Part shown: positions 6,937-59,594 of the stretch, in pieces | Position numbering within the stretch: position 1 is the stretch's first letter | Layout of the letters: the number at the start of each line of letters is the position of its first letter | NCBI GenBank assembly: GCA_944322145.1 | Contig: CALUNW010000003.1 | Location: 1 to 64,000, forward strand | Source: an uncultured Atopobiaceae bacterium | Lineage (GTDB): Bacteria; Actinomycetota; Coriobacteriia; Coriobacteriales; Atopobiaceae | Direction of reading: 5' to 3' | Length of the DNA stretch: 64,000 nt | Notes under the pieces: generated by a model | Seen by the model: the letters and a program-made list of their open reading frames with translations, nothing else | Told to the model about the DNA's origin: nothing | Databases searched by the model: none | Made by a program: the position numbers and the translations under genes

Positions 6937-7011
6937 CGCGTGACAATTAGGACAGGTTAAGTTGTCACACGAGTGCGGTGTGACAACTTAACCTGTCCTA
7001 ATTTTCACGCG
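6937..7011. repeat. Nested palindrome, GGACAG family copy 1
   Basis: Arms of 34 bp (6937-6970 and 6978-7011) pair with one mismatch around a 7-nt loop. Each arm is itself nearly palindromic (GTGACAA--TTGTCAC) around the core AGGACAGG. Its core and inner arm are shared with the copy at 26736-26844. The right arm contains the TAG stop codon (6998-7000) of the ribbon-helix-helix gene. Confidence 0.85.
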
Positions 7012-7186
7012 ACTCCTGGCCTTCGCCAGCCTTTCCGCGCGGCAGGCGGCCTGCGCGACGCAGGGCGTCGCGCAGGATCCACTCGACCTGGCCGTTGGCG
7101 CTACGCATCTCGTCCGCAGCCCAGCGCTCCACCGCGGCCCAGACCTCCGGGTCTATGCGGAGCGGATATTGCTTGCGGGCGGCCAC
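6998..7186 (-). CDS. Small ribbon-helix-helix (Arc-like) DNA-binding protein
   Basis: A 62-residue basic protein starting at GTG. The sequence [20 protein letters not shown] fits a beta-strand followed by helix A of the Arc/MetJ ribbon-helix-helix fold, then [17 protein letters not shown] as helix B. Such proteins bind DNA as dimers and often act as antitoxins or local repressors. It begins 12 nt after the stop of the SPFH gene and is surely cotranscribed with it, a pairing familiar from actinobacteria. Its stop codon lies inside a long palindrome, so the last few residues may have been replaced by that insertion. Confidence 0.7.
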
Positions 7187-7198
7187 GTTCTTCTCGCC

Positions 7199-8218
7199 TT
7201 ACTGGTAGAGGGAGCCGGTGTTGAGGACGGGCTGGGCCTCGGACTCGCCACAGAGGACGACCATCAGGTTCGAGGCCATCACAGCCTTGCGGTCGTCGTC
7301 GAACTCCACCACGCCGCCGTCGGAGAGCTCCTTGAGCGCCATGTCCACCATGGAGACCGCGCCCTCGACGATCTTCTTGCGCGCGGCGATGATGGCTTCG
7401 GCCTGCTGGCGGCGCAGCATGGCCTGGGCGATCTCCGGCGCGTAGGCGAGGTGCGTGAGGCGGGCGTCGTCCACCGAGACGCCGGCCGGGGCCAGGCGAC
7501 GGTCGAGCTCCTCCTTGAGGGACTCGGAGACCTCCTCGATGTTGGAGCGCAGCGTGATGGAGCTGTTGGAGGCATCGTCGTCCTCCATGTGGTCATAGGC
7601 GTAGATGCTCGCCACGTGGCGCAGCGCGGTCTCGGTCTGCATGGACACGTAGCTCGGGTAGTGGTCCACGTCGAAGAGGGCCTTGGCGGTGTCGGCCACG
7701 TGCCAGACCACGACGGTCGCGATCTCGATGGGGTTGCCCATCTTGTCGTTGACCTTGAGACGGTCGCCGTTGAGGGTACGGGCGCGCAGGGAGACCTTGG
7801 TGGAGAGCGCCTTTGCGGCCGCGGCTGCCTTCACGGACGGGGTGCCCTCCTCCAGGCTCACGTCGATGGAGGCGCCGGTGCCGTCCGAGCCAAGGCTGTG
7901 GCTATAGAAGGGGTTGACCCAGTAGAAGCCGGACTCGCGTACGGTGCCCACGTAGTTGCCAAAGAGCACGAGCACGCGGGCCTGCCCCGGCTGCAGCGAG
8001 AAGAAGCCGCAGGAGACGACGATGGCCACGACGAGCAGCACGATGCCGCCAGTGAGCAGCGCGGGCCCCGTGACGGGCGCGGGCACACCGGCCTCCTCGG
8101 CGGTGGCGAGGATGATGATGCCCTGGACCATGCCCCAGATGGCGGCGGCGTACGCGACGAGGGTGACGAAGAGCATGGGCCAGCCGGACGCGGCGCGGGC
8201 CTGCTTCTCTACGGTCAT
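7199..8218 (-). CDS. SPFH/Band-7 domain membrane protein
   Basis: A 339-residue protein with two N-terminal membrane helices (about residues 14-38 and 52-72), followed by an SPFH/prohibitin domain. Evidence includes the PGQARVLVLFGNYVGTVRESGFYWVNPFY region, the later DKMGNPIEIATVVVWHV strand, and a C-terminal coiled segment with AYAPEIAQAMLRRQQAEAIIAAR. Family members assemble into membrane rings or microdomains and may scaffold proteases. The ATG follows an AAAGGAAC site. A ribbon-helix-helix gene follows 12 nt downstream. No specific partner can be named. Confidence 0.88.
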   Translation of the reverse strand: MTVEKQARAASGWPMLFVTLVAYAAAIWGMVQGIIILATAEEAGVPAPVTGPALLTGGIVLLVVAIVVSCGFFSLQPGQARVLVLFGNYVGTVRESGFYWVNPFYSHSLGSDGTGASIDVSLEEGTPSVKAAAAAKALSTKVSLRARTLNGDRLKVNDKMGNPIEIATVVVWHVADTAKALFDVDHYPSYVSMQTETALRHVASIYAYDHMEDDDASNSSITLRSNIEEVSESLKEELDRRLAPAGVSVDDARLTHLAYAPEIAQAMLRRQQAEAIIAARKKIVEGAVSMVDMALKELSDGGVVEFDDDRKAVMASNLMVVLCGESEAQPVLNTGSLYQ

Positions 8219-8381
8219 TGCAGTTCCTTTCCTGGTGTCGGGTGCGCCCCGGGGTGGGCGTCCTCGACTGATGCCATTGTGATATCACATTGGTTTCTTC
8301 TTCACAAGCGTCAGGCGAGAGGGGGCTCATGGTCGGCGAGCGGCGAGGCGAGGGCGACGGGGAGTGGGCCCGATTGAGAAA

Positions 8382-8463
8382 TGTACGACCTTTCGAACTG
8401 CTGTTTGTGTATTGGGATGTAGAATTAAACGATTAAGTTTGTATGCCTTACGGAGGTCGTACA
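8382..8463. repeat. Spaced inverted repeat upstream of rlmD
   Basis: Perfect 10-bp arms TGTACGACCT (8382-8391) and AGGTCGTACA (8454-8463) are separated by 62 nt of unusually AT-rich sequence. This lies in the 310-bp gap between the SPFH gene and rlmD; nothing else is evident there apart from the promoter noted next. It could be a regulator binding pair. Confidence 0.4.
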
Positions 8464-8515
8464 AAAGTCGGGACAGCCCGCGCTGCCGAGGACTTCCGGG
8501 CCTCCGGGAGGCAGG

Positions 8516-8521
8516 TATACT
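8516..8521 (+). promoter_or_regulatory. -10 box for a probably leaderless rlmD transcript
   Basis: TATACT ends 7 nt before the rlmD ATG at 8529, which puts the predicted transcript start at or next to the start codon. No ribosome binding site lies at normal distance; a GGGAGG is 17 nt away. Leaderless mRNAs are common in actinobacteria. Confidence 0.5.
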
Positions 8522-8528
8522 GGGCCGT

Positions 8529-9695
8529 ATGGGATACAAGACCTACACCTGTCCGATTGCGCGTGACTGCGGAGGCTGCGAGTGGCTCGCGGTCCCCTAC
8601 CCCATTCAGCTGCGCCGCAAGCAGGAACAGGTCGAGGGGCTGCTCGGCGCCATGGCCGAGAAGGACGGCGCCGCCATTGAGCCCATCCGTGGGATGGGAG
8701 AGCCCCTGCGCTACCGCCACAAGGCTGCCACGCCGTTCGCGCACGGGCCGCGCGGCAGCGTCCGCTGCGGCTTCTACGCCGCCGGGACGCACCGCATCGT
8801 GCCGTGCCGGGACTGCCTCGTCGAGGACGGGCGGGCGCGGCGCATCCTCAATGCGGTGGCACGCGTAGCGGAGCGCCTGCACATCCCTCCCTATGACGAG
8901 GACCGCGGCGTGGGCGTGCTGCGCCACGCCGTCGTGCGCTGCGGTCACGCGACCGACGACGTGCTGCTCACGCTCGTCACCCGCGTGGACGAGCTGCGCG
9001 GCACCGAGCGCCTGGTCTCCGAGCTGCGCGCCGCGTGCCCCGAGGTCACGAGCATCGTCCAGAACGTTAACGACCGCCGCACCAACGCGATCCTGGGCCG
9101 CCGCTGCAAGACGCTCTACGGGCCGGGCCACATGCACGACAAGCTGCTCGGGTGCACCTTCGAGATCGGACCCACGAGCTTCTACCAGACCAACCCGGCC
9201 CAGACCGAGGTGCTCTACCGGCTCGCGCTCGAGGGCGCCGCGGGCGCGAGGCACGTGCTCGACGCCTACTGCGGCACGGGCACCATAGGCATCTGCGCCG
9301 CGGCGACGGAGCCGGGCGCGCAGGTCGTGGGCGTGGAGCAGGTGTCGGGCGCCGTCGCCTGCGCTCGGCGCAACGCCCAGGCGAACGGCGTCGCCGAGCG
9401 CTGCGACTTCGTCGCGGCCGACGCCACGAAGTGGATGGCGGGCACGGGCCGAGAAGAACGCTTCGACGTCGTCATCATGGACCCGCCTCGGGCCGGGAGC
9501 ACGCCGGAGTTCCTCGCGGGCGTGGCGACGCTCTCGCCCGAGCGCGTGGTATATGTGAGCTGCAACGTCATGACGCAGGTTCGCGACCTCGAGCTGCTGC
9601 GCGAGCGCGGGTATCGCCTCACGCGCGTGACCCCGGTGGACATGTTCCCGCACACAAAGCACGTGGAGAGCGTGGTCACGCTCGATCGTCGGTAG
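8529..9695 (+). CDS. rlmD: 23S rRNA (uracil-5)-methyltransferase, RlmD/TrmA family
   Basis: Transfers a methyl group from SAM to C5 of a uridine in 23S rRNA or tRNA. The 388 residues include an N-terminal iron-sulfur cysteine cluster (Cys8, Cys14, Cys17 in CPIARDCGGC, with a later Cys in PCRDC), the SAM motif VLDAYCGTGTIGI, the DPPRAG motif and the catalytic cysteine in VYVSCNVMT. Family members without a TRAM domain are usual in Gram-positives; none is seen here. The exact uridine cannot be told from sequence. The ATG is chosen because the reading frame upstream lacks family similarity and a -10 box sits just before it. Confidence 0.88.
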   Translation: MGYKTYTCPIARDCGGCEWLAVPYPIQLRRKQEQVEGLLGAMAEKDGAAIEPIRGMGEPLRYRHKAATPFAHGPRGSVRCGFYAAGTHRIVPCRDCLVEDGRARRILNAVARVAERLHIPPYDEDRGVGVLRHAVVRCGHATDDVLLTLVTRVDELRGTERLVSELRAACPEVTSIVQNVNDRRTNAILGRRCKTLYGPGHMHDKLLGCTFEIGPTSFYQTNPAQTEVLYRLALEGAAGARHVLDAYCGTGTIGICAAATEPGAQVVGVEQVSGAVACARRNAQANGVAERCDFVAADATKWMAGTGREERFDVVIMDPPRAGSTPEFLAGVATLSPERVVYVSCNVMTQVRDLELLRERGYRLTRVTPVDMFPHTKHVESVVTLDRR

Positions 9696-9721
9696 GCCGG
9701 CCAGGAGCGAAGCGCAAAGTG

Positions 9722-9754
9722 CGGCCGCCCGCGCTCGAGAGAGGCGGGCGGCCG
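9722..9754. terminator. Bidirectional hairpin between rlmD and purN
   Basis: CGGCCGCCCGC and GCGGGCGGCCG form an 11-bp GC stem with an 11-nt loop, between two convergent genes. There are no strong U-tracts. Confidence 0.55.
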
Positions 9755-9778
9755 TCGTCATGCCTATGTGGCGCGAGC

Positions 9779-10402
9779 CTACGCGGGGTCAATCGCAACG
9801 GTGAGGTCGGGGCGCACGTGGACGCGCCCGGCAGCGAGAAGCCCGACGACCTCGGGGTACAGCTCGTGCTCGATCTCGTGGATGTGCTCCTCGAGCTCGT
9901 CGACCGTCCAGCCCTCCTCCACCGGAAGCGCGCGCTGGGCGATGATGGGGCCCGCGTCGTAGTCGGCGTTGGCGAAGTGCACCGTAACGCCCGTGACCTT
10001 GACGCCGCGGTCGTAGGCGTCCTGGATGGCGTGGGCGCCCGGGAAGCTCGGCAGCAGGGCGGGGTGCAGGTTGACCACGCGGTTGGGAAACGTCGCGAGA
10101 ATCGGGTCGTGGACCTTGCGCATGTAGCCGGCCATGATGACGTAGTCCACGCCGTGACGCATGAGCTCCGCGGCGATGATCTCATCGGCCTGCTCGGGGT
10201 CGGCATAGACGTCCTTGGAGAGCGTGAGGGTCTGCAGGCCCGCCGCCTCGGCGCGCTTGAGGCCGAAGGCGCTCGGCCGCGAGCTCACCACGAGCTCGAT
10301 CGAAGCGTCGAGCGCGCCGTCGGCGATGCGGTCGATGATGGCCTGCAGGTTGGTCCCGCTGCCAGAGATGAGGACGCCGAGCTTGATGGCCTTATCGCTC
10401 AT
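9779..10402 (-). CDS. purN: Phosphoribosylglycinamide formyltransferase
   Basis: Third step of purine synthesis: formylation of GAR to FGAR using 10-formyl-tetrahydrofolate. The 207 residues show the SGSGTNLQ phosphate loop, the catalytic region NLHPALLPSFPGAHA (Asn, His) and TGVTVHFA--DAGPII with the catalytic Asp. The ATG at 10402 overlaps the end of purM by 11 bp, indicating translational coupling. Last gene of the purE-sortase-purF-purM-purN operon. Confidence 0.95.
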   Translation of the reverse strand: MSDKAIKLGVLISGSGTNLQAIIDRIADGALDASIELVVSSRPSAFGLKRAEAAGLQTLTLSKDVYADPEQADEIIAAELMRHGVDYVIMAGYMRKVHDPILATFPNRVVNLHPALLPSFPGAHAIQDAYDRGVKVTGVTVHFANADYDAGPIIAQRALPVEEGWTVDELEEHIHEIEHELYPEVVGLLAAGRVHVRPDLTVAIDPA

Positions 10403-11483
10403 CGTCGTACACCACCTTCCCCTTGGCGCCCGCCTCGCCAGCAACCACGCGGCCGACCTCGAACGGCTCGAGCCCCTGGGCGACCAGCGCCTCGCGCACC
10501 GCCGCCTCGTCCTCGGGGGCGCACACGATGGCCATGCCCACGCCCATGTTGAAGGTGCGATAGGCCTCGTCGAGCGTGAGGCCCGCGGCGTCGATCATGT
10601 ACGTGATGATGGGCGGGATGTCCCAGGCGGGACCCGCCTCGCCGCCGCGACACACCAGCGCGTCGAGCCCCTTGGGCATCGCGCGGTCGAGGTTCTCGGT
10701 GATGCCGCCGCCAGTGATGTGCGCCATCGCGTGAATCGGCGCGCCGGCGCGCAGGGCCGCCAGCAGCTGGCCCGCATAGATCGTCGTCGGGCGCATCACC
10801 GCGTCGGCGAGCGACTCGCCGCCCAGCTCGGTCAGGGGCGTCTCGAGCTCCTCGACGGTCTTGCCCTCGATGGCGACCTTGCGAACGAGGGAGTAGCCGT
10901 TGGAGTGGATGCCCGAGCTCGGCAGGCCGAGGATCACGTCGCCCTCGCGCACGTGGTCGGGGCCGATCATCTTGGGCCGGTCCACCACGCCCACGACAAA
11001 GCCGGCGAGGTCATAGTCGCCCTCGGCCATGACGCCGGGGTGCTCCGCCATCTCGCCGCCCACCAGGGCGCAGCCGGACTTGCGGCAGCCCTCCGCGATG
11101 CCGCCCACGATTTTGGCCACGTGCTCGGCGCGCAGCTTGCCGATGGCAACGTAGTCCAGGAAGAACAGGGGCTCGGCGCCCATCGGGACGATGTCGTCCA
11201 CGCACATGGCGACGAGGTCCTCGCCCACGGTCTCGTGGCGGTCGAGCAGCTGGGCGATGGCGAGCTTGGTGCCCACGCCGTCGGTGCCGGAAACGAGGAT
11301 GGGCTCCTCCATGTCCTTGAGCGCGGCGGCTGAGAAGCACGAGCCAAAGCCGCCGAGGCCGCCGATGACCTCGGGCCTGTTAGTGGCCGCGACGGCGGCC
11401 TTGATCGCGTCGACGGCGCGCGCGCCCTCGGCGGTGTCGACGCCGGCGTCCGCATAGCTCACGTGCTTGGTGTTCTCGGACAT
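10392..11483 (-). CDS. purM: Phosphoribosylformylglycinamidine cyclo-ligase (AIR synthetase)
   Basis: Closes the imidazole ring: FGAM plus ATP gives AIR. The 363 residues carry the family features SYADAGVD near the N-terminus, GGFGSCF, GTDGVGTKL, and the DIVPMGAEPLFFLDY and GGEMAEHPGVM segments. An AAAGGA site lies ahead of the ATG at 11483; a longer frame is not needed. It lies between purF and purN on the same strand with short gaps. Confidence 0.96.
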   Translation of the reverse strand: MSENTKHVSYADAGVDTAEGARAVDAIKAAVAATNRPEVIGGLGGFGSCFSAAALKDMEEPILVSGTDGVGTKLAIAQLLDRHETVGEDLVAMCVDDIVPMGAEPLFFLDYVAIGKLRAEHVAKIVGGIAEGCRKSGCALVGGEMAEHPGVMAEGDYDLAGFVVGVVDRPKMIGPDHVREGDVILGLPSSGIHSNGYSLVRKVAIEGKTVEELETPLTELGGESLADAVMRPTTIYAGQLLAALRAGAPIHAMAHITGGGITENLDRAMPKGLDALVCRGGEAGPAWDIPPIITYMIDAAGLTLDEAYRTFNMGVGMAIVCAPEDEAAVREALVAQGLEPFEVGRVVAGEAGAKGKVVYDDER

Positions 11484-11523
11484 CTTGGTCCTTTCTGTCG
11501 TTGGGGCGAGGGGCGGCCCCGCG

Positions 11524-13041
11524 TCACTTGTCCTCCGTGAGGATGGTCTGGGCCTCGTCAATCGTCATCCGCGAGGTCGCCGAGGCAGCCTCGAGGTTGT
11601 TGGGCTCGAACCCCGGAAGGAAGCGGTCCTCCCAGAACGAGCGCGGTATCTCGACGGGGTACTCCCCCGTGAAGCACGCCTTGCAGTAACCATGGGCCTC
11701 GCCTCCCGGCACGCAGGCGAGAAGTCCCTCGATGGAGAGGAAGCCCACGGAGTCCGCCTCGATATGGGCGCGAATCTCGTCGAGGCCCAGCCGGGCGGCA
11801 ACGAGCTGGTCCTGGCTGCCCGTGTCTATTCCGTAGAAGCAGGGCCACTTGACCATGGGCGAAGCCGAGCGCACGTGGACCTCGGTGGCGCCGGCGGCCT
11901 TGAGCATGCGCACGATCTGGCGCGAGGTGGTGCCGCGGACGATGGAGTCGTCCACCATCACGAGGCGCTTCCCGCGAACCACGTCGGGCAGGGCGTTGAG
12001 CTTGAGGCGCACGCCCATCTGGCGAAGCTCCTGCGTGGGCTGTATGAAGGTGCGTGCCACGTAGCGGTTCTTGATGAGGCCGGTGCCAAAGGGAATCCCC
12101 AGCTCCTGGGCAAAGCCCTCGGCAGCCGGCGTCCCGGAGTCGGGCACGGAGATCACGAGGTCGGCGTCGACGGGCGTCTCGCGGGCCAGCTGCCGGCCCA
12201 TGTTGTGGCGCATGAGGTAGAACGACGTCCCGCTCTGCACGGAGTCGGGTCGCGAGAAGTACACGTGCTCGAAGATGCAGTCTGCGCGACAGCCCGGCGC
12301 GCAGCCGCGCTCGGAGCGCAGGCCGTCATCGGAGATGCGCACGATCTCGCCGGGCTCGATCTCGCGCACGAAGGTCGCGCCCGAGATGTCGAGAGCGCAG
12401 GTCTCGCTCGCCACGACCCACCCGTCGTCGCCCAGCCTGCCCAGCACGAGCGGGCGGATGCCATGCGGGTCGCGGAAGGCGTAGAGGGCGTTCTCGCGGA
12501 CGAGGACCATGGCGTAGCCGCCCTCGAGCATGCGCATCATGTGAGCGATGCCCGTGCGCAGCCTGCCCGCGCGCTGCGTGAAGTAGCCGATGAGCTTGGC
12601 GGCAACCTCGGAGTCGGTGTTGGACCGGAAGGGTATTCCCATCTCGATGAGCTCCCGGCGGAGAGCGTCGAAGTTGACGAGCGTGCCGTTGTGCGCCAGG
12701 GCGATGATCACGTCGTTGATCGTGGAGAGGTGCGGCTGCGACGCCTCCCAGCCGCGCGCACCCGCCGTGCCGTAGCGGCAGTGGCCGCACGCCACCTTGC
12801 CGGGCATCGCGGAGAGGTCGGCGTCGGTGAAGACCTGGGTCACCAGGCCGAGGTCCTTGCGCACGAGCACCGTGCGCCCGTCGCCGACGGCAATTCCCGC
12901 AGACTCCTGGCCGCGATGCTGGAGCGCGCGGAGCGCGAAGTACGTCAGGCGCGCGACGTCGCGGTCAGGGGCCCACACGCCGAAGACGCCGCACTCCTCG
13001 TGGAGCCCGTCCGCGGCGGGGGCGCCGGAAAGGGTCGTCAT
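11524..13041 (-). CDS. purF: Amidophosphoribosyltransferase
   Basis: Committed step of purine synthesis: PRPP plus glutamine to phosphoribosylamine. The 505 residues begin with a 16-residue propeptide-like stretch before Cys17 (EE-CGVFGVW), the glutamine-amidotransferase nucleophile exposed by processing in this family. The PRPP loop is VMVDDSIVRGTT. Cysteines in CAPGCRADC and GYCKACFTGEYP fit the iron-sulfur cluster of the Bacillus-type enzyme. The ATG overlaps the TGA of the upstream sortase gene (ATGA), so translation is coupled. Confidence 0.96.
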   Translation of the reverse strand: MTTLSGAPAADGLHEECGVFGVWAPDRDVARLTYFALRALQHRGQESAGIAVGDGRTVLVRKDLGLVTQVFTDADLSAMPGKVACGHCRYGTAGARGWEASQPHLSTINDVIIALAHNGTLVNFDALRRELIEMGIPFRSNTDSEVAAKLIGYFTQRAGRLRTGIAHMMRMLEGGYAMVLVRENALYAFRDPHGIRPLVLGRLGDDGWVVASETCALDISGATFVREIEPGEIVRISDDGLRSERGCAPGCRADCIFEHVYFSRPDSVQSGTSFYLMRHNMGRQLARETPVDADLVISVPDSGTPAAEGFAQELGIPFGTGLIKNRYVARTFIQPTQELRQMGVRLKLNALPDVVRGKRLVMVDDSIVRGTTSRQIVRMLKAAGATEVHVRSASPMVKWPCFYGIDTGSQDQLVAARLGLDEIRAHIEADSVGFLSIEGLLACVPGGEAHGYCKACFTGEYPVEIPRSFWEDRFLPGFEPNNLEAASATSRMTIDEAQTILTEDK

Positions 13042-14093: not shown

Positions 14094-14105
14094 GCGCGAC
14101 GGCCC

Positions 14106-14567: not shown

Positions 14568-14601
14568 GATGATCCCCTCTCGTCGCTGCATATGCCTCAT
14601 C

Positions 14602-23010: not shown

Positions 23011-23069
23011 GGTGCCGAAACAGCCCCATCTGCGCGAGCATGGCACGCAGATGGGGCTGTTTCGGCACC
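23011..23069. repeat. Long perfect palindrome after the HTH gene
   Basis: Perfect 24-bp arms (23011-23034 and 23046-23069; GGTGCCGAAACAGCCCC--) with an 11-nt loop, 9 nt past the stop codon. No U-tract follows. It resembles the GGACAG palindromes in size and position but has ACAGCCCC instead of the core. Confidence 0.75.
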
Positions 23070-26735: not shown

Positions 26736-26844
26736 GAGACAGCGGGGGCAGGTGCGTGACAATTAGGACAGGTTGAATTGTCACATGCCCTCTATGTGAC
26801 AATTCAACCTGTCCTAATTGTCACGCACCTGCCCCCGCTGTCTC
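26736..26844. repeat. 51-bp-arm perfect nested palindrome, GGACAG family copy 2
   Basis: Two arms of 51 bp (26736-26786 and 26794-26844) are exact complements around a 7-nt loop. The inner part of each arm, GTGACAATT--AATTGTCAC around AGGACAGG, is itself palindromic and matches the copy at 6937-7011. It ends one base from the dnaB stop codon and lies upstream of purA. Confidence 0.92.
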
Positions 26845-34409: not shown

Positions 34410-34492
34410 GCAGTGGCCCAAATAGGGACAGGATACTTTTGGGTCATAAAGAACATGACCCAAAAGTATCCTGTCCCTATTTGGGCCACTGC
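34410..34492. repeat. Nested palindrome, GGACAG family copy 3
   Basis: Perfect 38-bp arms (34410-34447 and 34455-34492) with a 7-nt loop. Each arm holds CCCAAAT--GGGACAGG--TTTTGGG, so the arm is itself partly palindromic. Nearly the same element lies at 59500-59594. Confidence 0.9.
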
Positions 34493-36504: not shown

Positions 36505-36609
36505 TCTGTGAATTGGGGTCGTGTTTTTTCGTGCAGACCGTTTGGGACAGGTTTCTATAAAACCTGTCCCAAACGGTCTGCACGAAAAAACACGACCCCA
36601 ATTCACAGA
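36505..36609. repeat. Long palindrome, GGACAG family copy 4
   Basis: Perfect 50-bp arms (36505-36554 and 36560-36609) with a 5-nt loop; GGGACAGG sits next to the loop. The right arm contains the TGA stop codon (36603-36605) of the neighbouring gene. Its arms are not clearly self-palindromic, unlike the other copies. Confidence 0.9.
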
Positions 36610-41156: not shown

Positions 41157-41237
41157 GGGTGATTCAAAAGGGGACAGACCCCTTTTGAATCATGGGTTTG
41201 ATGATTCAAAAGGGGTCTGTCCCCTTTTGAATCACCC
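41157..41237. repeat. Nested palindrome, GGACAG family copy 5, between gyrB and gyrA
   Basis: Perfect 37-bp arms (41157-41193 and 41201-41237) with a 7-nt loop. Each arm contains a complete inner hairpin: GATTCAAAAGGGG-ACAGA-CCCCTTTTGAATC (13 bp). It lies between the gyrB stop (41248) and the gyrA start (41141). Confidence 0.92.
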
Positions 41238-51512: not shown

Positions 51513-51536
51513 CTTCTCCGTTACATGGTATCTTCG

Positions 51537-52346: not shown

Positions 52347-52371
52347 CGGCGGCGCGCGGAGGTTCCACGTG

Positions 52372-52385
52372 AAACAGGTCGAGAA
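52372..52385. other. Degenerate parS site upstream of parA
   Basis: GTTCCACGTGAAAC, one mismatch from the parS core, in the rsmG-parA gap 65 nt before the parA start. It may also regulate parA. Confidence 0.7.
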
Positions 52386-52449
52386 GCACGAGCGCCGTCC
52401 GGGAGCCTCTACAATGATGAGCGGACAACCACTCTGATTCGGAGGCTGC

Positions 52450-53250
52450 ATGAGCTATAAGGACACCAAGCGGGGCCTGCCACAGCGAGACAGCAAGGTG
52501 ATTGCCGTCATCAACCAAAAGGGAGGGGTCGGAAAGTCGACCACGGTCGTCAATCTTGCGGCCTGCCTCGGCGAGGGCAAGAAGAAGGTGCTCGTCATAG
52601 ACTTTGACCCGCAGGGCAACGCGACAAGTGGCTATGGCGTCGAGAAGGAGGAGCTGGAGCACGACATCTACGACGTGATCCTTCATGACGTTCCCATCGA
52701 GGACGTTATCCGGGAGACCTGCGCTCACAACGTGTACATCGCTCCCGCGACGATTCAGCTCGCGACCGCCGAGATCGAGCTCGTTGCCGAGATGTCACGC
52801 GAGTCCATCCTCAAGGAGACGATAGGGCAGGTCAAAGACGAGTTCGACTACGTCTTCATTGACTGCCCCCCGTCGCTCGGCCTGCTGACCATCAACGCCC
52901 TGGTTGCCGCCGACTCGCTCATCATCCCGATTCAGTGTGAGTACTACGCTCTCGAGGGGGTCGCAAAGCTCCTCGAGTCGATGCAGATGGTCAAGAGGCG
53001 CATGAACCGCGACCTTGAGATCTTCGGCATCGTCATGACCATGTACGACAGCAGGACGACCCTCTCCAAGCAGGTCGTCGACGAGGTCCAGGAGTACTTC
53101 GGCAAGAAGATGTTCAAGACCATCATCCCGAGGAACGTGAAGCTCTCGGAGGCCCCCAGCCACGGCCTGCCCATCTCCCAGTACGCCCGCATGAGCAAGG
53201 GCGCGCTCGCATACCAGAAGCTCGCGCGGGAGGTGGTCTCCCGTGGCTAA
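52450..53250 (+). CDS. parA: Chromosome partitioning ATPase ParA (Soj)
   Basis: 266 residues, deviant Walker A KGGVGKST near residue 25, DFDPQGNAT, IDCPPSLGLLT, and C-terminal LSEAPSHGLPI. Moves ParB-parS complexes along the nucleoid. GGAGGCTGC before the ATG. Overlaps parB. Confidence 0.96.
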   Translation: MSYKDTKRGLPQRDSKVIAVINQKGGVGKSTTVVNLAACLGEGKKKVLVIDFDPQGNATSGYGVEKEELEHDIYDVILHDVPIEDVIRETCAHNVYIAPATIQLATAEIELVAEMSRESILKETIGQVKDEFDYVFIDCPPSLGLLTINALVAADSLIIPIQCEYYALEGVAKLLESMQMVKRRMNRDLEIFGIVMTMYDSRTTLSKQVVDEVQEYFGKKMFKTIIPRNVKLSEAPSHGLPISQYARMSKGALAYQKLAREVVSRG

Positions 53251-54106
53251 GAAGGCGGGGCTGGGCAGGGGTCTGGGGCTCCTCGTCGGCGAGGCCGACG
53301 CGGAGACCGCCGGCATGCGGGCCGACTCGACCCTTCCGCTGGACCGCATCCGTCCTAACAAAGACCAGCCGAGAAGGACGTTCGACGACGTCGAGCTCGC
53401 TGAGCTCGCGGATTCCATCAGGCAGAACGGTGTCTTGCAGCCGCTGCTCGTGCGCGACAGGGGCGACTACTACGAGATAGTCGCCGGGGAGCGGAGATAT
53501 CAGGCGGCTCGGGCCGCGGGGCTCGACGAGGTGCCGGTCATCATCCGCGACATCTCCGACGACGACGTCTTCAAGCTGGCCCTCATTGAGAACCTTCAGC
53601 GCTCTGACCTCAGTCCCCTCGAGGAGGCGAACGGCTATCGCCAGCTCATCAAGGAGAAGGGCCTGACTCAGGAGGAGCTTGCCAAGATCCTCTCCAAGTC
53701 CCGCTCCACGATCACCAACACCCTTCGCCTCCTCGACCTTCCCGAGGAGGTTCAGGAGCTCGTCGAGACGGGGCAGCTGACGGCGGGACATGCCCGGGCG
53801 ATTCTCGCAGTGCCGGACGAGGAGGGCAGGATTGCGCTCGCAAAGAGGGTTGTCAGCGAGCGTCTTTCCGTGCGGCAGACAGAAAGTCTCGCCTCGACGT
53901 TTTCTGTCAATCAGGAGGACGGGCCGCGCCGAGCTCCCCTGCCGCAGTCGTTCAAGCGCGCGGCGCGCCAGATGCGCCTCGCGCTCGACACCAACGTGAG
54001 GGTGAAGAACGTGCGAGGAAAGAACAAGATCGAGATCGAGTTTGCCTCTGAGGACGAGCTCGCTCACATCGTCGATCTTCTCGCCGGACCGGGGACGTGG
54101 TCATAG
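53243..54106 (+). CDS. parB: Chromosome partitioning protein ParB (Spo0J)
   Basis: 287 residues: N-terminal ParA-activating start (AKKAGLGRGLGLL), CTP-binding ParB/Srx fold with GERRYQAARAAGL and IENLQRSDLSPLEEA, a helix-turn-helix (TQEELAKILSKSRSTITNTLRLL), and a dimerisation C-terminus. GTG start inside the parA 3' end with GGGAGGTGG upstream. Confidence 0.96.
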   Translation: MAKKAGLGRGLGLLVGEADAETAGMRADSTLPLDRIRPNKDQPRRTFDDVELAELADSIRQNGVLQPLLVRDRGDYYEIVAGERRYQAARAAGLDEVPVIIRDISDDDVFKLALIENLQRSDLSPLEEANGYRQLIKEKGLTQEELAKILSKSRSTITNTLRLLDLPEEVQELVETGQLTAGHARAILAVPDEEGRIALAKRVVSERLSVRQTESLASTFSVNQEDGPRRAPLPQSFKRAARQMRLALDTNVRVKNVRGKNKIEIEFASEDELAHIVDLLAGPGTWS

Positions 54107-54349
54107 ATGAAGAGATTCGTGGGATATGCGGTTGCCCTGGGGACGCTCGTGGGGGCAGGGGCCCTTCTCTATAGGTTTGGCCTGAGCGATGAGGCAAAAG
54201 ACGGGGTGAGGCGCGCCGCGCAAAGCGTCAGGGACGCGTATGAGAGCGTCTCGCAGCACGTGAGTGACCTCTACGGAGGGGGAGCCGCTGAGGACATGGC
54301 CTCTCGCCAGCGGGATGTGGCACATCAGTGGGAGGCTCTCGGATTCTAA
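54107..54349 (+). CDS. Small membrane-anchored protein (YtxH-like)
   Basis: 80 residues immediately after the parB stop. One N-terminal membrane helix (GYAVALGTLVGAGALLYRFG) followed by an amphipathic helix (DEAKDGVRRAAQSVRDAYESV). This resembles YtxH-type small proteins but the match is loose. Cotranscribed with parAB, which suggests an envelope link; this is inference. Confidence 0.6.
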   Translation: MKRFVGYAVALGTLVGAGALLYRFGLSDEAKDGVRRAAQSVRDAYESVSQHVSDLYGGGAAEDMASRQRDVAHQWEALGF

Positions 54350-54384
54350 GCAGAGCGGGCCGGCATGCATCCGGCCCGCTCTGC
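54350..54384. terminator. Bidirectional terminator between parAB and rlmN
   Basis: Perfect 14-bp arms (GCAGAGCGGGCCGG and complement) with a 7-nt loop; convergent genes on both sides. Confidence 0.75.
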
Positions 54385-54414
54385 TAAAGGGCGGGAAGAG
54401 GCGTTGCCCTATGG

Positions 54415-55488
54415 CTAAGAGTTGCGCATCCTCTGTTTGAGCTGGCCGCAGGCGGCGTCAATGTCCGCCCCGCGGGAGTTTCTCACCGTGGCCTCGACGC
54501 CGACGGCGGAGAGGGCGCGGACGAAGTCTTGCGCGCGCAGGTCGGTGGACGGTCGCAGCTTGGAGCCCTCGACCTCATTGAGCTGGATGAGATTGACGTG
54601 GGCGAGGGTCCCCTCGCAGAAGTCGCAGAGCGCCTGGAGCTCGCTGTCCGTGTCGTTGACCCCGCCTATGAGCGCGTACTCGTAGGTCGGCCTGCGCCCC
54701 GTCTTGTTGACGTACTCTCCCATGACGTTGTAGAGGTTGATGAGGGAGTACTTCCTCACGCCGGGCATGAGGGCGTTTCTCGTCCTCTGGACGGCGGAGT
54801 GGAGCGAGATCGCCAGGGTGAACTGCTCGGGCTCGTTGGCAAACCTCATGATCTGGGGGATGACCCCGCAGGTGGAGACCGTGAGGTGCCGCGCGCCGAT
54901 GCCCGCGCCCTCGGGGTCGTTGAGCCTCCGCAGGGCGCCGAGCGTGGCGTCGTAGTTGAGGAAGGGCTCTCCCTGCCCCATGAAAACCACGCTGGTCACG
55001 CGCGTGTTGAAGTCGTCTCGAACGTGCATGACCTGCTCGTAGATCTCCGCCGAGGAGAGGGAGCGCGTGAGGCCGGCTGCGCCGGTGGCGCAGAAGGAGC
55101 ATCCCATCGGGCAGCCCGCCTGGGTGGAGACGCAGACGGAGAGCTTTCCTCGCGAGGGCATGCCGACGCACTCGACGCTCACCCCGTCGGGGAAGCGCAG
55201 CAGGTACTTTCTGCTCCCGTCGGCCGATACCTGGCGCGCGATCTCCTCGACGCCACCGAGCGTGAGCCTCTTTGCGAGCTCCTCGCGCAGGGTCTTGGGA
55301 AGGTTGGTCATCTCGTCGAACGACTGGGCGTTCTTCGACCACACCCATTCTTCGATCTGCTTGACCCTGAAGGAGGGCTGGCCGAGCTCGGAGAGGAGCT
55401 CGGCGATCTCACCGTGGGTGAGGGTGTGGAGGTCCCTCTGCGCAGCGCCTGCGTCAGGGGACGGCGTCTGGTTGGTTCCTGTTGGCAT
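54415..55488 (-). CDS. rlmN: Dual-specificity RNA methyltransferase RlmN
   Basis: Radical-SAM enzyme methylating C2 of A2503 in 23S rRNA and A37 in tRNA. 357 residues: CPMGCSFCATG binds the iron-sulfur cluster, FMGQGEPFLNYD, the catalytic Cys region DIDAACGQL near the C-terminus. The start MPTGTNQ follows GAGGGGTC. The only minus-strand housekeeping gene among plus-strand genes here. Confidence 0.94.
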   Translation of the reverse strand: MPTGTNQTPSPDAGAAQRDLHTLTHGEIAELLSELGQPSFRVKQIEEWVWSKNAQSFDEMTNLPKTLREELAKRLTLGGVEEIARQVSADGSRKYLLRFPDGVSVECVGMPSRGKLSVCVSTQAGCPMGCSFCATGAAGLTRSLSSAEIYEQVMHVRDDFNTRVTSVVFMGQGEPFLNYDATLGALRRLNDPEGAGIGARHLTVSTCGVIPQIMRFANEPEQFTLAISLHSAVQRTRNALMPGVRKYSLINLYNVMGEYVNKTGRRPTYEYALIGGVNDTDSELQALCDFCEGTLAHVNLIQLNEVEGSKLRPSTDLRAQDFVRALSAVGVEATVRNSRGADIDAACGQLKQRMRNS

Positions 55489-55593
55489 TTCTGACCCCTC
55501 TGTCTGCCGTCGCACGTCTGGAGTATGCTTCATGTGGTGTTTTCTACACTCAAGAGTCTAGCGTATGGGCGCCAGCCCGCCGGAGGAGCTTTG

Positions 55594-56553
55594 ATGGACA
55601 GAGAAGAGCTGCTGAGCAAGAAGGTCGTCGTCATCTGCGGCGGTTGGTCTGACGAGAGGGAGATCTCGCGGTCGTCTGCGGGAGAGTGCCGCCAGGCTCT
55701 TCTCGACGCGGGGTTTGGAAGCGTCGACCTGCTCGACCTCGCCGATGGGGATTTCCTCTCCCGCCTCGTCGCAGGTGGATACGACGTGGCATTCGTTGCC
55801 ATGCACGGACGCTACGGGGAGGACGGCTGCGTCCAGGGTCTTCTCGAGATTCTGCACATGCCCTACACCTTCTCGGGCGTCGCCGCCTCGGCCGCGGCGA
55901 CGGAGAAGGAGGTCGCCAAGGCGGTCTACGCCGCCGCGGGAATCAGGGCGCCGCGGGGATTTGACGTGGCGGCGGGCACGGCCCTCACCGACGAGCAGGT
56001 CGACAAGGTCGTCGAGTCGATGGGTCTTCCGCTCTTCGTCAAGCCGGCGGCGAACGGCTCGTCCTACGGCATCTCCCGCGTGACGGAGCGCTCCGGCATC
56101 AACGAGGCCATTCGCGTCGCCGGTTCCCAGGGCGGTCGCGTCCTGGTGGAGGAGTGCGTCCAGGGAACCGAGATCACCGTCCCCGTGATCGGCAACGACG
56201 ACCCGCGCGCCCTGCCGGTCGTCGAGATCGTGACGGGCGCCGAGTTCTATGACCTCAAGGTCAAGTACGAGCCCTCTGCGATGCATCATGTCATCCCCGC
56301 CCGCCTTGAGCCCGGGGTCTACACCAAGGCGCAGGAGCTCGCCGTGCGCGCGCACCGCGCGCTCGGGTGCCGCGGATGCTCGCGCAGCGACTTCATCGTC
56401 ACTCCCGCCGGCGAGCCTATCATCCTGGAGACCAACACCATTCCCGGTATGACGGCGGAGAGCCTCCTGCCGGATTCCGCCCGCCACGGCGGCATCGAGT
56501 TCCCCGAGCTCTGCACGCTCTTCGTGGAGCTCGCCCTCGAGGGCCGGGCGTGA
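55594..56553 (+). CDS. ddl: D-alanine-D-alanine ligase
   Basis: Makes D-Ala-D-Ala for peptidoglycan. 319 residues: GGWSDEREISRSSA near the start, MHGRYGEDG, the ATP-grasp VKPAANGSSYGISRV and the NTIPGMTAESLLP end. The active-site position in the K-YEPSAMHH segment is a Tyr-type (KY), consistent with D-Ala rather than D-Lac activity, by family knowledge. GGAGGAG before the ATG. Confidence 0.93.
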   Translation: MDREELLSKKVVVICGGWSDEREISRSSAGECRQALLDAGFGSVDLLDLADGDFLSRLVAGGYDVAFVAMHGRYGEDGCVQGLLEILHMPYTFSGVAASAAATEKEVAKAVYAAAGIRAPRGFDVAAGTALTDEQVDKVVESMGLPLFVKPAANGSSYGISRVTERSGINEAIRVAGSQGGRVLVEECVQGTEITVPVIGNDDPRALPVVEIVTGAEFYDLKVKYEPSAMHHVIPARLEPGVYTKAQELAVRAHRALGCRGCSRSDFIVTPAGEPIILETNTIPGMTAESLLPDSARHGGIEFPELCTLFVELALEGRA

Positions 56554-59495
56554 GCATGGCGGGAGAGGCGACCACCGGCCTTTCAGAGCTGATCGCCCCG
56601 GGCACGCCCGAAGAGGTCAGGGACCGCTATCTCAGCCTGGCCGCCCGTGCCGAGGGCAGGGGGTTCGGCCCTCTCGAGGAGGACGTCGTCGTCCTGGACA
56701 CCGAGACGACGGGGCTCTCCTTCAAGGACTGCGACCTCATCGAGATATCCGCGGCGCGTATGTCGGGTCGCGAGGTGGTGGGTCGCTTCGAGACCTTCGT
56801 GCATCCCGGGGGACCCATACCCGCGGAGATAACCAGGCTCACGGGCATCTCCAACCGCGACGTGGCGGACGCCCCCTCCCCGCGCGACGCCGTCGCGGCG
56901 CTGGCGGAGTTCGTCGCCGGCTCCCCCGTGCTCGCACACAACGCGACCTTCGACCGCACGTTCATCGAGGCGGTCCCCGGCGGGTCTGCGGTCTCGGACG
57001 TCTGGATCGACACGCTCTCGCTCTCGCGCATCGCACTGCCGTGCCTGACCACGCACCGTCTCGCGGACATGGCCGCCGCCTTCGGATGTGCCTCGGTGAC
57101 GCACCGCGCGGGAGACGACGTGGACGCGCTCTGCGGGATGTGGCGCATCCTGCTGCTGGCCCTCTCCGACCTGCCGGCGGGCCTCGCAGCCCTTCTCGCT
57201 GACATGCACCCCGACGTTTCCTGGCCGCTCAGGACGATCTTCTCGTACCTCGCGGATGCCGGCGTCGCCCCCGCCCGTCCCTTCTCCCTCAAGGAGGCCC
57301 GCTCGGCGCTCGTCCGCGGGACCCAGGGCTCTCCTCGCCTCGACGCCGCCGAGCTCGACCACATCGCCGCCGTGAGCGGCGACGAGGTCGAGCGCGAGTT
57401 TGGCGCGAACGGCGCGGTGGCGCGCATGTACGAGCACATGGAGCTCCGTCCCGAGCAGGTGGCGATGGCGCGCGAGGTCGCGGAGGCGCTCTCGACCTCC
57501 ACGCACCGCGCGATCGAGGCGGGGACGGGCGTGGGGAAGTCCGTCGCCTACCTTCTTCCCGAGGTCCTCTTCGCGAAGAGGAACAACGTCACGGTGGGCG
57601 TGTCCACGAAGACCAACGCCCTTACCGACCAGCTCGTCTCCCAGGAGCTGCCCGCCCTCTCGGCGGCGCTTCCCGGAGGGGTCAGCTTCGTGAGCCTCAA
57701 GGGGTATGACCACTACCCCTGCCTGCACCGGCTCGACCGTGCCGTCGTCGACGACCTGCCGCTTGCGACGGTCTCGCACGACGGAAGGTCGGACAACGCC
57801 GTGGCCTGCGACATGCTCACTGCGATTGCGGTCACCTACGCGTTCGCGTGCCAATCTCCGGACGGCGACGTCGACGCGCTGGGCATCCGCTGGCGATATG
57901 TCCCGCGTCCCCTGCTCACGACGACGCCGGGAGAGTGCCTGCGCGGGCGCTGCCCCTACTTTCCCAACGAGTGCCCTCTCCACGGCGCGCGCCGCCGCGC
58001 GACCTGCTCCGACGTGGTGGTGACGAACCACTCGCTTCTGCTGAGAAACGTCGCCGCCGACGGCAAGATCCTGCCCCCGATCAGGCACTGGGTGGTCGAC
58101 GAGGCCCACGGCCTCGAGGCGGAGGCGCGCCGCCAGTGGGCCGTCGAGGTCTCGGGGGAGGAGGCGCGCGCAGCCTTCGAGCTGCTCGGGGGAACGACGA
58201 CCGGCACCATCCACAACCTCATGGTGCGGGCGATGTCGCTCGAGGGGTCGACGCTGGTGGTGGGCATGCTCGCAAAGGCCGCAGCGACGCTCTCCCGGGC
58301 GTCGGTCTCGGTGGCCGACCTCTTCGTCGCCGTGCACGAGCTCGGCTCCGTTGCACGCGGGGACGGGGGATATGACTCCGTGACCCTGTGGCTCGGAGAC
58401 GAGGTCCGCTCGACGCCCGAGTGGGCCGCCGTCGCCGACGCCGGTGGAGTCGCGGCCGAGGTCGTCAGGGAGGCGGTGCGACAGCTTGCCGAGGCGGCCG
58501 AGGCAATGGCACCAGAGGCCCCCTCGCTTGCGGCCGACCTCGGGGAGTCCACGAGGTTCCTCCGGGACCTGTGCGCGGGCATCGAGCTCATCTGCGCCGG
58601 GACCGACCGAAGCTACGTATATTCGGCGCAGCTCAGCAGGTCGAGAAGGAAGATGTCCTCCGAGAAGCTCGTGGCGGAGAAGATCGACATCGGGTCCGAC
58701 CTCGCCGCGCGCTGGCTGCCCGAGATGCGAAGCGTCATCTTCACCTCCGCCACGATTGCGGTGGGGGACGACTTTGCCCACTTCGACCACGCGGTCGGCC
58801 TCGACCTGCTCGACAAGGGGTCCCATCGCGCCCTTCGCCTGGACTCGAGCTTTGACTTCGACTCCCACATGTCCGTCGTGGTGGCCCGCGACCTTCCCGC
58901 CCCAAATGACAGGGCATATCTTCCCGCGCTCGAGGACCTTCTCTTTGACGTGCACGTCTCGATGGGCGGCTCGGTGCTGACGCTGTTCACCAACCGCCGA
59001 GACATGGAGCGAGCCTTCGAGGCGCTGCAGCCTCGCCTCGCCGCCGCGGGGCTCGAGGTCGCGTGCCAGAGCCGCGGGACCTCCCCGCGCCGCCTCCGCC
59101 AGCGCTTCATGGAGGAGCGGTCTCTCTCCCTCATGGCCCTGCGCTCCTTCTGGGAGGGGTTTGACGCGGCCGGCGACACCCTGCGCTGCGTGGTCATACC
59201 TAAGCTGCCCTTTGCGAGCCCCAACGACCCGCTCGTGCGCGAGCGTGACGCCCGCGAGGACCGCGCATGGTGGAAGTACTCCCTTCCCGACGCGGTCATA
59301 TCGGTGAAGCAGGCCGCAGGTCGCCTCATCCGCTCGTCGACCGACACCGGCGTGCTCGTGCTCGCGGACTCGCGGCTCGTGTCAAAGGGGTACGGTCGCC
59401 TGTTCGTGGGCTCCCTGCCCTCGAGGAGCGTCACCCGCCTCGAGAGCGCAAACGTCGGTCGCTACCTCAACCTCTGGCGCGCGAGCCACGAGTGA
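56550..59495 (+). CDS. dinG: DnaQ-like exonuclease / DinG-type helicase fusion
   Basis: About 981 residues. Residues 30-200 form a DEDDh exonuclease (VVLDTETTG, HNATFDRTF, H-x4-D); the rest is an XPD/DinG helicase: Walker A AGTGVGKS, Cys residues in GECLRGRCPYFPNECPL and RRATCSD fitting an iron-sulfur cluster, VVDEAHGLE box, FTSATIAVGDDF and QAAGRLIRSSTDTG. This fusion is usual in Gram-positives. The GTG at 56550 overlaps the ddl stop and is well spaced from GAGGG; the ATG at 56556 is possible. A PafBC-like pair lies convergent downstream. Confidence 0.9.
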   Translation: MSMAGEATTGLSELIAPGTPEEVRDRYLSLAARAEGRGFGPLEEDVVVLDTETTGLSFKDCDLIEISAARMSGREVVGRFETFVHPGGPIPAEITRLTGISNRDVADAPSPRDAVAALAEFVAGSPVLAHNATFDRTFIEAVPGGSAVSDVWIDTLSLSRIALPCLTTHRLADMAAAFGCASVTHRAGDDVDALCGMWRILLLALSDLPAGLAALLADMHPDVSWPLRTIFSYLADAGVAPARPFSLKEARSALVRGTQGSPRLDAAELDHIAAVSGDEVEREFGANGAVARMYEHMELRPEQVAMAREVAEALSTSTHRAIEAGTGVGKSVAYLLPEVLFAKRNNVTVGVSTKTNALTDQLVSQELPALSAALPGGVSFVSLKGYDHYPCLHRLDRAVVDDLPLATVSHDGRSDNAVACDMLTAIAVTYAFACQSPDGDVDALGIRWRYVPRPLLTTTPGECLRGRCPYFPNECPLHGARRRATCSDVVVTNHSLLLRNVAADGKILPPIRHWVVDEAHGLEAEARRQWAVEVSGEEARAAFELLGGTTTGTIHNLMVRAMSLEGSTLVVGMLAKAAATLSRASVSVADLFVAVHELGSVARGDGGYDSVTLWLGDEVRSTPEWAAVADAGGVAAEVVREAVRQLAEAAEAMAPEAPSLAADLGESTRFLRDLCAGIELICAGTDRSYVYSAQLSRSRRKMSSEKLVAEKIDIGSDLAARWLPEMRSVIFTSATIAVGDDFAHFDHAVGLDLLDKGSHRALRLDSSFDFDSHMSVVVARDLPAPNDRAYLPALEDLLFDVHVSMGGSVLTLFTNRRDMERAFEALQPRLAAAGLEVACQSRGTSPRRLRQRFMEERSLSLMALRSFWEGFDAAGDTLRCVVIPKLPFASPNDPLVRERDAREDRAWWKYSLPDAVISVKQAAGRLIRSSTDTGVLVLADSRLVSKGYGRLFVGSLPSRSVTRLESANVGRYLNLWRASHE

Positions 59496-59499
59496 GCGC

Positions 59500-59594
59500 G
59501 CCCAAAAGGTGGCCCAAATGGGGACAGGATACTTTTGGGACATGCTCTCGATGTCCCAAAAGTATCCTGTCCCCATTTGGGCCACCTTTTGGGC
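59500..59594. repeat. Nested palindrome, GGACAG family copy 6
   Basis: Perfect 44-bp arms (59500-59543 and 59551-59594) with a 7-nt loop, between convergent dinG and the WYL gene, 5 and 3 nt from their stop codons. Its inner part (GTGGCCCAAAT-GGGACAGG-ATACTTTTGGG) nearly equals the copy at 34410-34492, 25 kb away. Confidence 0.92.

What the first reader, a model, noticed from the sequence alone, without database searches (positions are those of the whole stretch)
6937..59594. A dispersed family of nested palindromes with a GGACAG core and 7-nt loop
Six long copies (6937-7011, 26736-26844, 34410-34492, 36505-36609, 41157-41237, 59500-59594) have perfect or one-mismatch arms of 34-51 bp. Five of six loops are exactly 7 nt. 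All contain (A/G)GGACAG in one half and its complement in the other. In five, each arm is itself a small palindrome around the core, so the element can fold as one long hairpin or two short ones. Outer sequences form sub-families: GTGACAATT (two copies), GGCCCAAAT (two copies), GATTCAAAAG and a fourth. Such design recalls paired REP/BIME units moved by RAYT transposases (TnpA-REP), but the core and the interchangeable arms look unfamiliar. No transposase is in the window.
Basis: partly seen in the sequence, partly recalled or inferred. Interest (0 to 1): 0.85.

Follow-up and report, generated by a model that had tools for sequence, protein, structure and literature searches.

The report
Transposon-end hairpins sharing chromosomal slots
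These near-perfect DNA hairpins look like gene-less miniature jumping elements, each made of the two ends of a small single-strand-DNA transposon still found elsewhere in this gut bacterium or its close relatives, and different families of them turn up at the same gaps between genes in sister species.

Summary
The six hairpins are real and part of a large population: 43 hairpins with the core in a 1.25 Mb sample of this genome. They are not classical GTAG REPs. Each is a gene-less dimer of the terminal inverted repeats (TIRs) of a TIRYT, a RAYT-like Y1/HUH transposase flanked by TIRs with motif GGGGWSAS (Di Nocera 2013). The genome has three Y1 genes, none in the window. Two carry the repeats of window copies 41157 and 34410/59500; genes for the other two window families occur in congeners. 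Transposase and repeat similarity run together (Mantel r 0.73); hairpin number follows transposase number over 31 species (rho 0.69). Little described so far: (1) different families occupy the same intergenic slots in sister species (hairpins shared in 21 of 37 gap-genome pairs, controls 2 of 48; family different in 16 of 21); (2) most B and D elements sit inside mirrored shells; (3) arms stay perfect while diverging between species. At the gyrB-gyrA slot the stem often resembles the resident transposase's repeats. New variant of a known kind; movement itself is inferred.

The parts
6937..7011 (.). D-family hairpin (GTGACAATTAGGACAGGTTRARTTGTCAC units, 7-nt loop), one arm mismatch; between argG and an SPFH gene
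   Evidence: cognate TIR at Y1 gene L258 of congener G018; genes; orthologous site not compared
26736..26844 (.). D-family hairpin, 51-bp perfect arms, one base from the dnaB stop codon
   Evidence: in congeners the same gap holds B, E, F, another or no hairpin
26736..26755 (.). outer mirrored shell GAGACAGCGGGGGCAGGTGC (mirror at 26825-26844), read as remnant of an older GAGACA-type element
   Evidence: 20-nt mirror beyond the D element; GAGACA-type units at the same gap in G003, G024, G027 and related forms in G004 and G016 (by reading)
34410..34492 (.). B-family hairpin (TGGCCCAAATAGGGACAGGATACTTTTGGGTCAT), between convergent Gly-transporter and BipA/TypA genes
   Evidence: same element in G018 with changes on both arms; related Y1 gene L002 in own genome, flanked by B hairpins
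36505..36609 (.). E-family hairpin, 50-bp perfect arms, 5-nt loop, upstream of BipA/TypA
   Evidence: same element in G012, C-type unit at the spot in G018; E-type TIRs at Y1 genes L286, L262, L260, L277
41157..41237 (.). A-family hairpin (two TGATTCAAAAGGGGACAGACCCCTTTTGAATCA units inverted) in the gyrB-gyrA intergenic gap
   Evidence: identical 33-nt unit flanks Y1 gene L001 of own genome on both sides; slot compared over congeners
59500..59594 (.). B-family hairpin, 44-bp arms, between two convergent stop codons (DinG-like helicase, WYL gene); no comparable hairpin at this gap in 26 congeners read

Best explanation
The hairpins are non-autonomous miniature elements (left TIR, short loop, right TIR) of TIRYT transposases, RAYT-like single-strand-DNA Y1/HUH enzymes. 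Every TIRYT lineage has its own stem sequence around a common GGGGACAG core and multiplies its cognate hairpins. New copies settle between genes, preferentially where an older hairpin already stands, sometimes inside it, so that families replace and nest in each other at fixed slots. Shown: cognate TIRs, copy number following transposase number, presence/absence and family differences at orthologous gaps, arms that stay perfect while they diverge. Inferred: that the TIRYT cuts at the TIRs of ssDNA and pastes copies in trans; that existing hairpins are the preferred target; and that replication template switching keeps the arms perfect.
For: Three PF01797 genes in the genome, flanked by A-, B- and C-type units. 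Over the genus 61 of 64 readable Y1 genes have flanking inverted repeats scoring 14 or more, against 27 of 292 cross-genome pairs; in 73 readable loci of Coriobacteriia it is 64, against 12 of 263. All four window families have a cognate gene in own genome or genus (by reading the TIRs). Protein similarity tracks TIR similarity, Mantel r 0.73, 0 of 5000 permutations. GGGGACAG-N24-54-CTGTCCCC: 0-50 per congener with the reversed control 0-1; the three genomes without a Y1 hit have 0, 0 and 1; rho 0.69. Hairpin 59500 has no counterpart in 26 congeners read. Slot sharing 21 of 37 against 2 of 48. At gyrB-gyrA the hairpin resembles resident TIRs (mean 25.1; permuted mean 15.3, highest 21.1 of 20000); better than the nearest kin's TIRs in 12 of 18, tied in 6, lower in none. 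By a lenient rule 0 of 43 core hairpins lie deep inside genes.
Against: No movement was observed. The D and E families have no transposase in this (94.9% complete) assembly. 19 of 62 genus TIRs lack GGACAG, so the core is common, not universal. G021 has one Y1 gene and no exact hairpin match. Slot sharing is not significant for G012 alone (p 0.22). The resident match fails at gyrB-gyrA for G009, G010, G020 and G026 (scores 9-11), is weak at the dnaB slot (16.7 against 13.5; 17 of 20000) and fails for G000's own D hairpin there; the kinship-controlled correlation at gyrB-gyrA is only 0.21 (102 of 5000). Slots could be hot spots rather than targeting of hairpins. Two-sided arm differences follow automatically once both hairpins compared are perfect, so they show that arms stay perfect, not how; whole-element replacement would give the same.
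Confidence: 0.82

Rival explanations
1. Classical REP/REPIN elements of a GTAG-type RAYT.
For: Paired inverted palindromes, between genes, a cognate Y1 gene per family, divergent gaps avoided (3 of 43 hairpins against 126 of 712 gaps).
Against: GT[AG]G at the foot in 6 of 90 ends; NF047646 below cut-off in 3 of 3 proteins; genes flanked by TIRs with GGGGACAG.
Confidence: 0.06
2. Ordinary intrinsic terminators or RNA hairpins kept by selection at gene ends; the transposase link is secondary.
For: Positions beside stop codons and between convergent genes; stems that stay paired while they change; same gap used in many species.
Against: No T-run after any of the six on either strand; stems match transposase TIRs; families swap between sister species; hairpin pattern nearly absent in the three congeners without a Y1 hit; same core in unrelated stems.
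Confidence: 0.05
3. Slots are only insertion hot spots (gene ends tolerated by selection); no targeting of existing hairpins and no replacement.
For: Short distances to gene ends (crude gene calls); 9 of 12 A-family copies have 0 or 1 mirrored base outside the element.
Against: Control gaps of 40 bp or more hold a core hairpin in only 2 of 44 gap-genome pairs against 21 of 37; shells resembling older elements around B and D copies; D inside what look like F remnants at L055:12454 in G018 and G012.
Confidence: 0.4
4. Arms are perfect because each copy is a fresh insertion from a perfect donor, not because arms are corrected in place.
For: Whole-family swaps at a slot are common; two-sided differences are forced when both hairpins are perfect.
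Against: G011 and G020 share loop and stems at gyrB-gyrA yet differ at an outermost pair on both arms; G000 and G018 share an unusual inner sequence at 34410 and differ at two pairs on both arms. These are few cases.
Confidence: 0.4

Closest known systems
TIRYT / TIRtron and its TIR dimer families (Di Nocera et al. 2013, PMC3733652; passages and section 14 read)
   Same: RAYT-like Y1 transposase flanked by long TIRs, many with GGGGWSAS; TIRs dispersed as singles, dimers or groups; more than one family in a genome.
   Different: Here a genus of Coriobacteriia with six or more families around one core, perfect arms up to 58 bp, hairpin number tied to the number of genes, families swapping at shared slots, mirrored shells.
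TnpAY1 subclass 2.1 (Quentin et al. 2018, PMC6006769; named sections and passages read)
   Same: NHVH motif, Y---NP, about 250 aa (class median 238), C-terminal extension, TIRs; the authors think the class probably is TIRYT.
   Different: Subclass not settled here: Y motifs YIH[QN]NP seen in several of ours are those listed for subclass 2.6, which however has a median of 179 aa and atypical structures. No tree with their sequences was made. Their survey found no REP-like sequences near subclass 2.1 genes.
REPINs / BIMEs of RAYT (TnpAREP), and the 'orthoswitch' of cognate REPs (Nunvar et al. 2013, PMC3686654; passages read)
   Same: Paired palindromes, a cognate transposase per family, repeats changing with the transposase between related strains.
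   Different: No GTAG foot; in the passages read the orthoswitch is inferred from gene flanks and copy numbers, not from swaps at orthologous sites.
Quasipalindrome template switching (Monttinen and Loytynoja 2022, PMC8794818; abstract and opening read)
   Same: A known process that makes and mends perfect stems with two-sided changes.
   Different: Proposed here for mobile-element hairpins; not tested directly.

Membership tests
TIRYT / TIRtron miniature element | RAYT-like Y1 HUH transposase | tested here: met
   PF01797 over cut-off in 3 of 3 own proteins; HUH and Y..NP motifs; NF047646 hit below its cut-off
TIRYT / TIRtron miniature element | Gene flanked by terminal inverted repeats | tested here: met
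   61 of 64 readable genus genes, 64 of 73 wider loci
TIRYT / TIRtron miniature element | TIR motif GGGGWSAS | tested here: met
   GGGGACAG in the TIRs of all three own genes; over the genus 43 of 62 TIRs hold GGACAG and 3 more another GGGGWSAS form
TIRYT / TIRtron miniature element | C-terminal HTH (Bac_DnaA_C, HTH_23, HTH_28) | tested here: inconclusive
   only sub-threshold hits to other HTH-like models in 2 of 3 proteins; conserved C-terminal stretch with RLTG in eight aligned proteins
TIRYT / TIRtron miniature element | Enzyme binds and cleaves its TIRs | not testable with these tools
   needs biochemistry
GTAG REP / REPIN of RAYT | GT[AG]G tetranucleotide 0-2 nt from the hairpin foot | tested here: not met
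   6 of 90 ends of 45 elements; 1 of 12 feet of the window hairpins
GTAG REP / REPIN of RAYT | RAYT equivalog model NF047646 over cut-off | tested here: not met
   62.8, 65.4, 68.5 bits against 80
Intrinsic terminator | T-run after the hairpin | tested here: not met
   none at six hairpins, both strands

The most novel reading that the evidence does not exclude
Existing hairpins are themselves the landing pads: a TIRYT inserts new hairpins into, or swaps them for, older hairpins of any family sharing the GGGGACAG core, and template switching then copies changes onto both arms, so that a fixed chromosomal slot (such as the gyrB-gyrA gap) is rewritten again and again to match whichever transposase lives in that species.
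Probability: 0.3. Interest if true: 0.8.

Novelty: new variant of a known kind. Interest (0 to 1): 0.6.

Why it matters
How REP-like palindromes spread is an open question in the field (Corneloup 2021, PMC8266576, passages read). This genus offers 31 held species, three of them without a Y1 hit in the search, several cognate families side by side and the same slots carrying different families in sister species: a natural experiment for target choice, replacement and arm correction. TIRYTs are hardly studied; the word TIRYT occurs in 2 papers of the library.

Tried and rejected
Rfam gave only four tRNAs in the window. A literature search for the core with 'transposase' listed unrelated papers; one joining REP, Coriobacteri and transposase gave none. 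Idea that loss of the palindrome nuclease SbcCD allows the hairpins: the SbcD model is over cut-off in 0 of 31 congeners (8 of 14 controls over cut-off), but in genus g31 16 of 16 genomes have SbcD and 14 of 16 have the hairpin pattern, so absence is not required. Idea that every new copy joins exactly behind a GGGGACAG of an older element: it fits some shells (L055:14517, L058:8831) but others end before the core (59500, L073, L266, L275), so dropped. Idea that mirrored flanks are universal: no, A-family copies mostly have none. A first gene-calling attempt mis-stranded gyrB (there 7 of 43 hairpin midpoints fell in called genes) and was replaced; the distances to gene ends come from the first, crude one, and one search counts a hairpin as deep only if it is more than 130 bp from both gene ends.

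Rows dropped: 4 of 76 Y1 matches not fetched, 8 of 72 loci not readable by my HUH..Y rule; 7 of 80 loci with short flanks; one search compared only hairpins with arms of 22 bp or more that were at least 70% alike in register, which leaves out G026 and the decayed ones; G002 and G014 had no Y1; site 6937 not compared; one of the two control 'hits' (L075:13668) is a gap where G000 has a hairpin with a decayed core. The cross-genome controls contain pairs that share a family. The 44 elements include several species' copies of the gyrB-gyrA slot.

Full report
Observation. Eight first-order Markov resamplings of the window gave longest arms of 9-12 bp. In a 1.25 Mb sample of the 2.40 Mb assembly (window plus 60 stretches) there are 74 perfect inverted repeats with arms of 16 bp or more and loops of 3-15 nt; 43 of them hold GGACAG or CTGTCC, among them 30 of the 32 with arms of 31 bp or more, the longest 58 bp. 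Eleven of the 43 lie in eight stretches that I had picked because of known hits; the other 32 lie in about 1.10 Mb taken without that choice, so some 70 per genome is a fair guess.

Families. By eye: A (TGATTCAAAAGGGGACAGACCCC..), B (TGRCCCAAATGGGGACAGGATACTTTTGGGACAT), C (AATTGGGGACAGTCCCCAATT), D (GTGACAATTAGGACAGGTTGAATTGTCAC), E (GGGGACGTGTTTTTTCGTGCAGACCGTTTGGGACAGGTTT), F (GGGGACAGGTACAAAACCGCAGGTAAAACCTGTCAAAAGT). Window copies: 41157 A; 34410 and 59500 B; 6937 and 26736 D; 36505 E.

The transposase. The genome has three Y1 (PF01797) genes, on contigs C6 and C11, none in the window. L001 is flanked on both sides by single A units in inverted orientation, L002 on both sides by whole B hairpins, L003 by C units. 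In 31 congeneric genomes 28 have a Y1 match, 76 matches in all. I fetched 72 and could read 64; 61 of the 64 have flanking inverted repeats with an ungapped score of 14 or more, against 27 of 292 upstream/downstream pairs mixed across genomes, and 43 of the 62 repeats scoring 12 or more hold the core. This gives cognates for D (L258 in G018), E (L286, L262, L260, L277) and F (L263, L087). In 60 TIRs, protein similarity and TIR similarity go together (Mantel r 0.73, 0 of 5000 permutations); mean TIR similarity is 0.93 for nearly identical proteins and falls to 0.21 for distant ones. In the asymmetric families B, D, E and F the hairpin's arm reads outside-to-loop as the TIR reads outside-to-gene, so the hairpin is the transposon without its gene (my reading).

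Distribution. The pattern GGGGACAG-N24-54-CTGTCCCC occurs 0-50 times per congener, the reversed control 0-1. The three genomes without a Y1 hit have 0, 0 and 1; G021 has one Y1 gene and 0. Spearman rho of Y1 and hairpin numbers is 0.69, p 1.8e-5, not corrected for kinship. In the family it is found in 59 of 140 genomes and 9 of 35 genera. A scan of named genomes (80 best of 502 loci kept) found relatives of the transposase mainly in Coriobacteriia; 64 of 73 readable loci have TIRs scoring 14 or more, against 12 of 263 mixed pairs, 28 of the 64 with the core. Genera named there include Thermophilibacter, Olsenella, Collinsella, Enorma and Gordonibacter; contig lengths place the window's genus with Thermophilibacter provencensis and T. 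mediterraneus.

Place. With gene calls trained on nine window genes, 0 of 43 core hairpins lie more than 130 bp inside a called gene; 29 lie in tandem, 11 in convergent and 3 in divergent gaps, against 468, 118 and 126 for all gaps. None of the six has a T-run behind it, so they are not ordinary intrinsic terminators. 26736 stands one base from the dnaB stop, 59500 fills the space between two convergent stops, 41157 lies in the gap between gyrB and gyrA.

Slots. At 59500 none of 26 congeners whose gap could be read has a comparable hairpin (G022 has one short palindrome of another type); in the nearest three the gap is 20, 47 and 65 nt. Elsewhere the surprise is sharing with exchange. At the dnaB end: own D, B in G001 and G018, E in G009, F in G017, others or none elsewhere. 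At L055:12454: F here, B in G017, D lying inside what looks like an F remnant in G018 and G012. At L075:15151: F here, D in G018, with flanks 92-98% identical. At L059:17006: A here and in G017 (81 nt identical), a GCAAAAG unit in G018, C in G012. Of the 21 core-bearing hairpins of relatives listed, by eye 16 belong to another family than ours at that site and 5 to the same. The formal test, over 53 kb with orthologues in G012, G017 and G018: where this genome has a core hairpin the relative has one in 21 of 37 gap-genome pairs, elsewhere in 2 of 48 (2 of 44 for gaps of 40 bp or more); Fisher 4e-8 pooled, and 0.22, 4e-5 and 6e-4 apart. Pooled pairs are not independent.

Shells. Of 44 elements of six families, 18 have four or more further mirrored bases beyond their own ends, against 17 of 2000 mixed flank pairs; these are 12 of 14 B, 4 of 6 D, 1 of 8 H and 1 of 12 A elements. 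Several shells read as the outer half of another element (GTGAGACGGTGGGGACAG before B at L058:8831; GAGACAGCGGGGGCAG before D at 26736, where congeners hold GAGACA-type units). I read these as remnants of earlier occupants.

Arms. At gyrB-gyrA, 12 of the 20 hairpins or remnants examined have perfect arms of 31-37 bp, G023 has one mismatch and G026 two; G002, G009 and G010 carry decayed versions without the core, G003 is a chimera (left unit A, right unit of the G011/G020 type) and G014 and G028 have single units. Over the 21 genome pairs with arms at least 70% alike, differences fall on both arms 52 times and on one arm twice, both times in G023. This count says little more than that arms are perfect while they diverge: two perfect hairpins can only differ on both arms, and pairs share history. 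More telling are cases that are the same insertion by their loops: G011 and G020 differ at an outermost pair on both arms; at 34410 G000 and G018 share an unusual inner sequence and differ at two pairs on both arms; at 36505 G000 and G012 differ at one pair on both arms.

Resident match. The gyrB-gyrA hairpin of 18 genomes compared with the flanks of Y1 genes: own mean 25.1, permuted mean 15.3, highest of 20000 permutations 21.1; G009, G010, G020 and G026 show no match. Own beats the nearest kin (by flanks) in 12, ties in 6, is never lower; a kinship-controlled correlation is weak (0.21, 102 of 5000). At the dnaB slot the effect is small (16.7 against 13.5, 17 of 20000) and does not hold for G000 itself.

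Mechanism. Shown: cognate pairing, copy number following the gene, presence/absence, exchange at slots, perfect arms that diverge. From general knowledge of HUH Y1 enzymes: cleavage and rejoining of single-stranded hairpin ends. Inferred: movement in trans, preference for existing hairpins, and template switching as the arm corrector (a known process: Monttinen and Loytynoja 2022, abstract and opening read).

Known or new. The closest description is TIRYT/TIRtron (Di Nocera 2013, passages and one section read), including TIR dimers and GGGGWSAS; Quentin 2018 (sections read) equates TIRYT probably with subclass 2.1 and found no REP-like sequences there. Our proteins fit 2.1 by length and TIRs, but Y motifs YIH[QN]NP in several also fit subclass 2.6, so the subclass is open. 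Nunvar 2013 (passages read) describes the switch of cognate REPs along with the transposase. I found no paper on exchange of families at orthologous slots in seven library searches, but papers in journals not held could have it, and Bertels 2017 is known to me only through Quentin. Hence: new variant of a known kind.

Noticed in passing
window 23011-23069; L055:15189-15309: A second hairpin repeat without the core (GGTGCCG..CGGCACC); a related stretch in L055 has many partial copies on both strands in G017 and G018.
   Followed up: no
L199, L209, L213, L221, L223 (dnaB gap), L376 (L075:11826 gap): The same gaps hold in several congeners another kind of element of roughly 200 nt with repeated short ends (for example GAGTCTGTA/TACAGACTC, GGGTACTTT/AAAGTACCC).
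   Followed up: no
genus genomes G000-G030: SbcD (TIGR00619) over cut-off in 0 of 31 congeners, two having weak sub-threshold hits, while genus g31 of the family has it together with the hairpins.
   Followed up: partly
L244 (G003), gyrB-gyrA gap: Chimeric hairpin: left unit of the A family, loop and right unit of the GATACGA type of G011/G020.
   Followed up: partly
window 41157-41237 and G022 (L234): The whole 81-nt hairpin is identical in G000 and G022 although flanks are 87% and 95% identical; at L059:17006 G000 and G017 are also identical, there with flanks over 98%.
   Followed up: no
L079 (G015), L080 (G003): Two much stronger Y1 matches (116 and 112 bits, frames of about 200 aa), possibly ordinary IS200-type transposases.
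   Followed up: no
L026:19384, L035:12629, L021:14408; L025:11992, L036:18512; L069 and L070: Further dispersed perfect hairpins without the core (..CGCCATATGCGTG; GTTCCGGACGGT; GGCTCCC..GGGCTC).
   Followed up: no
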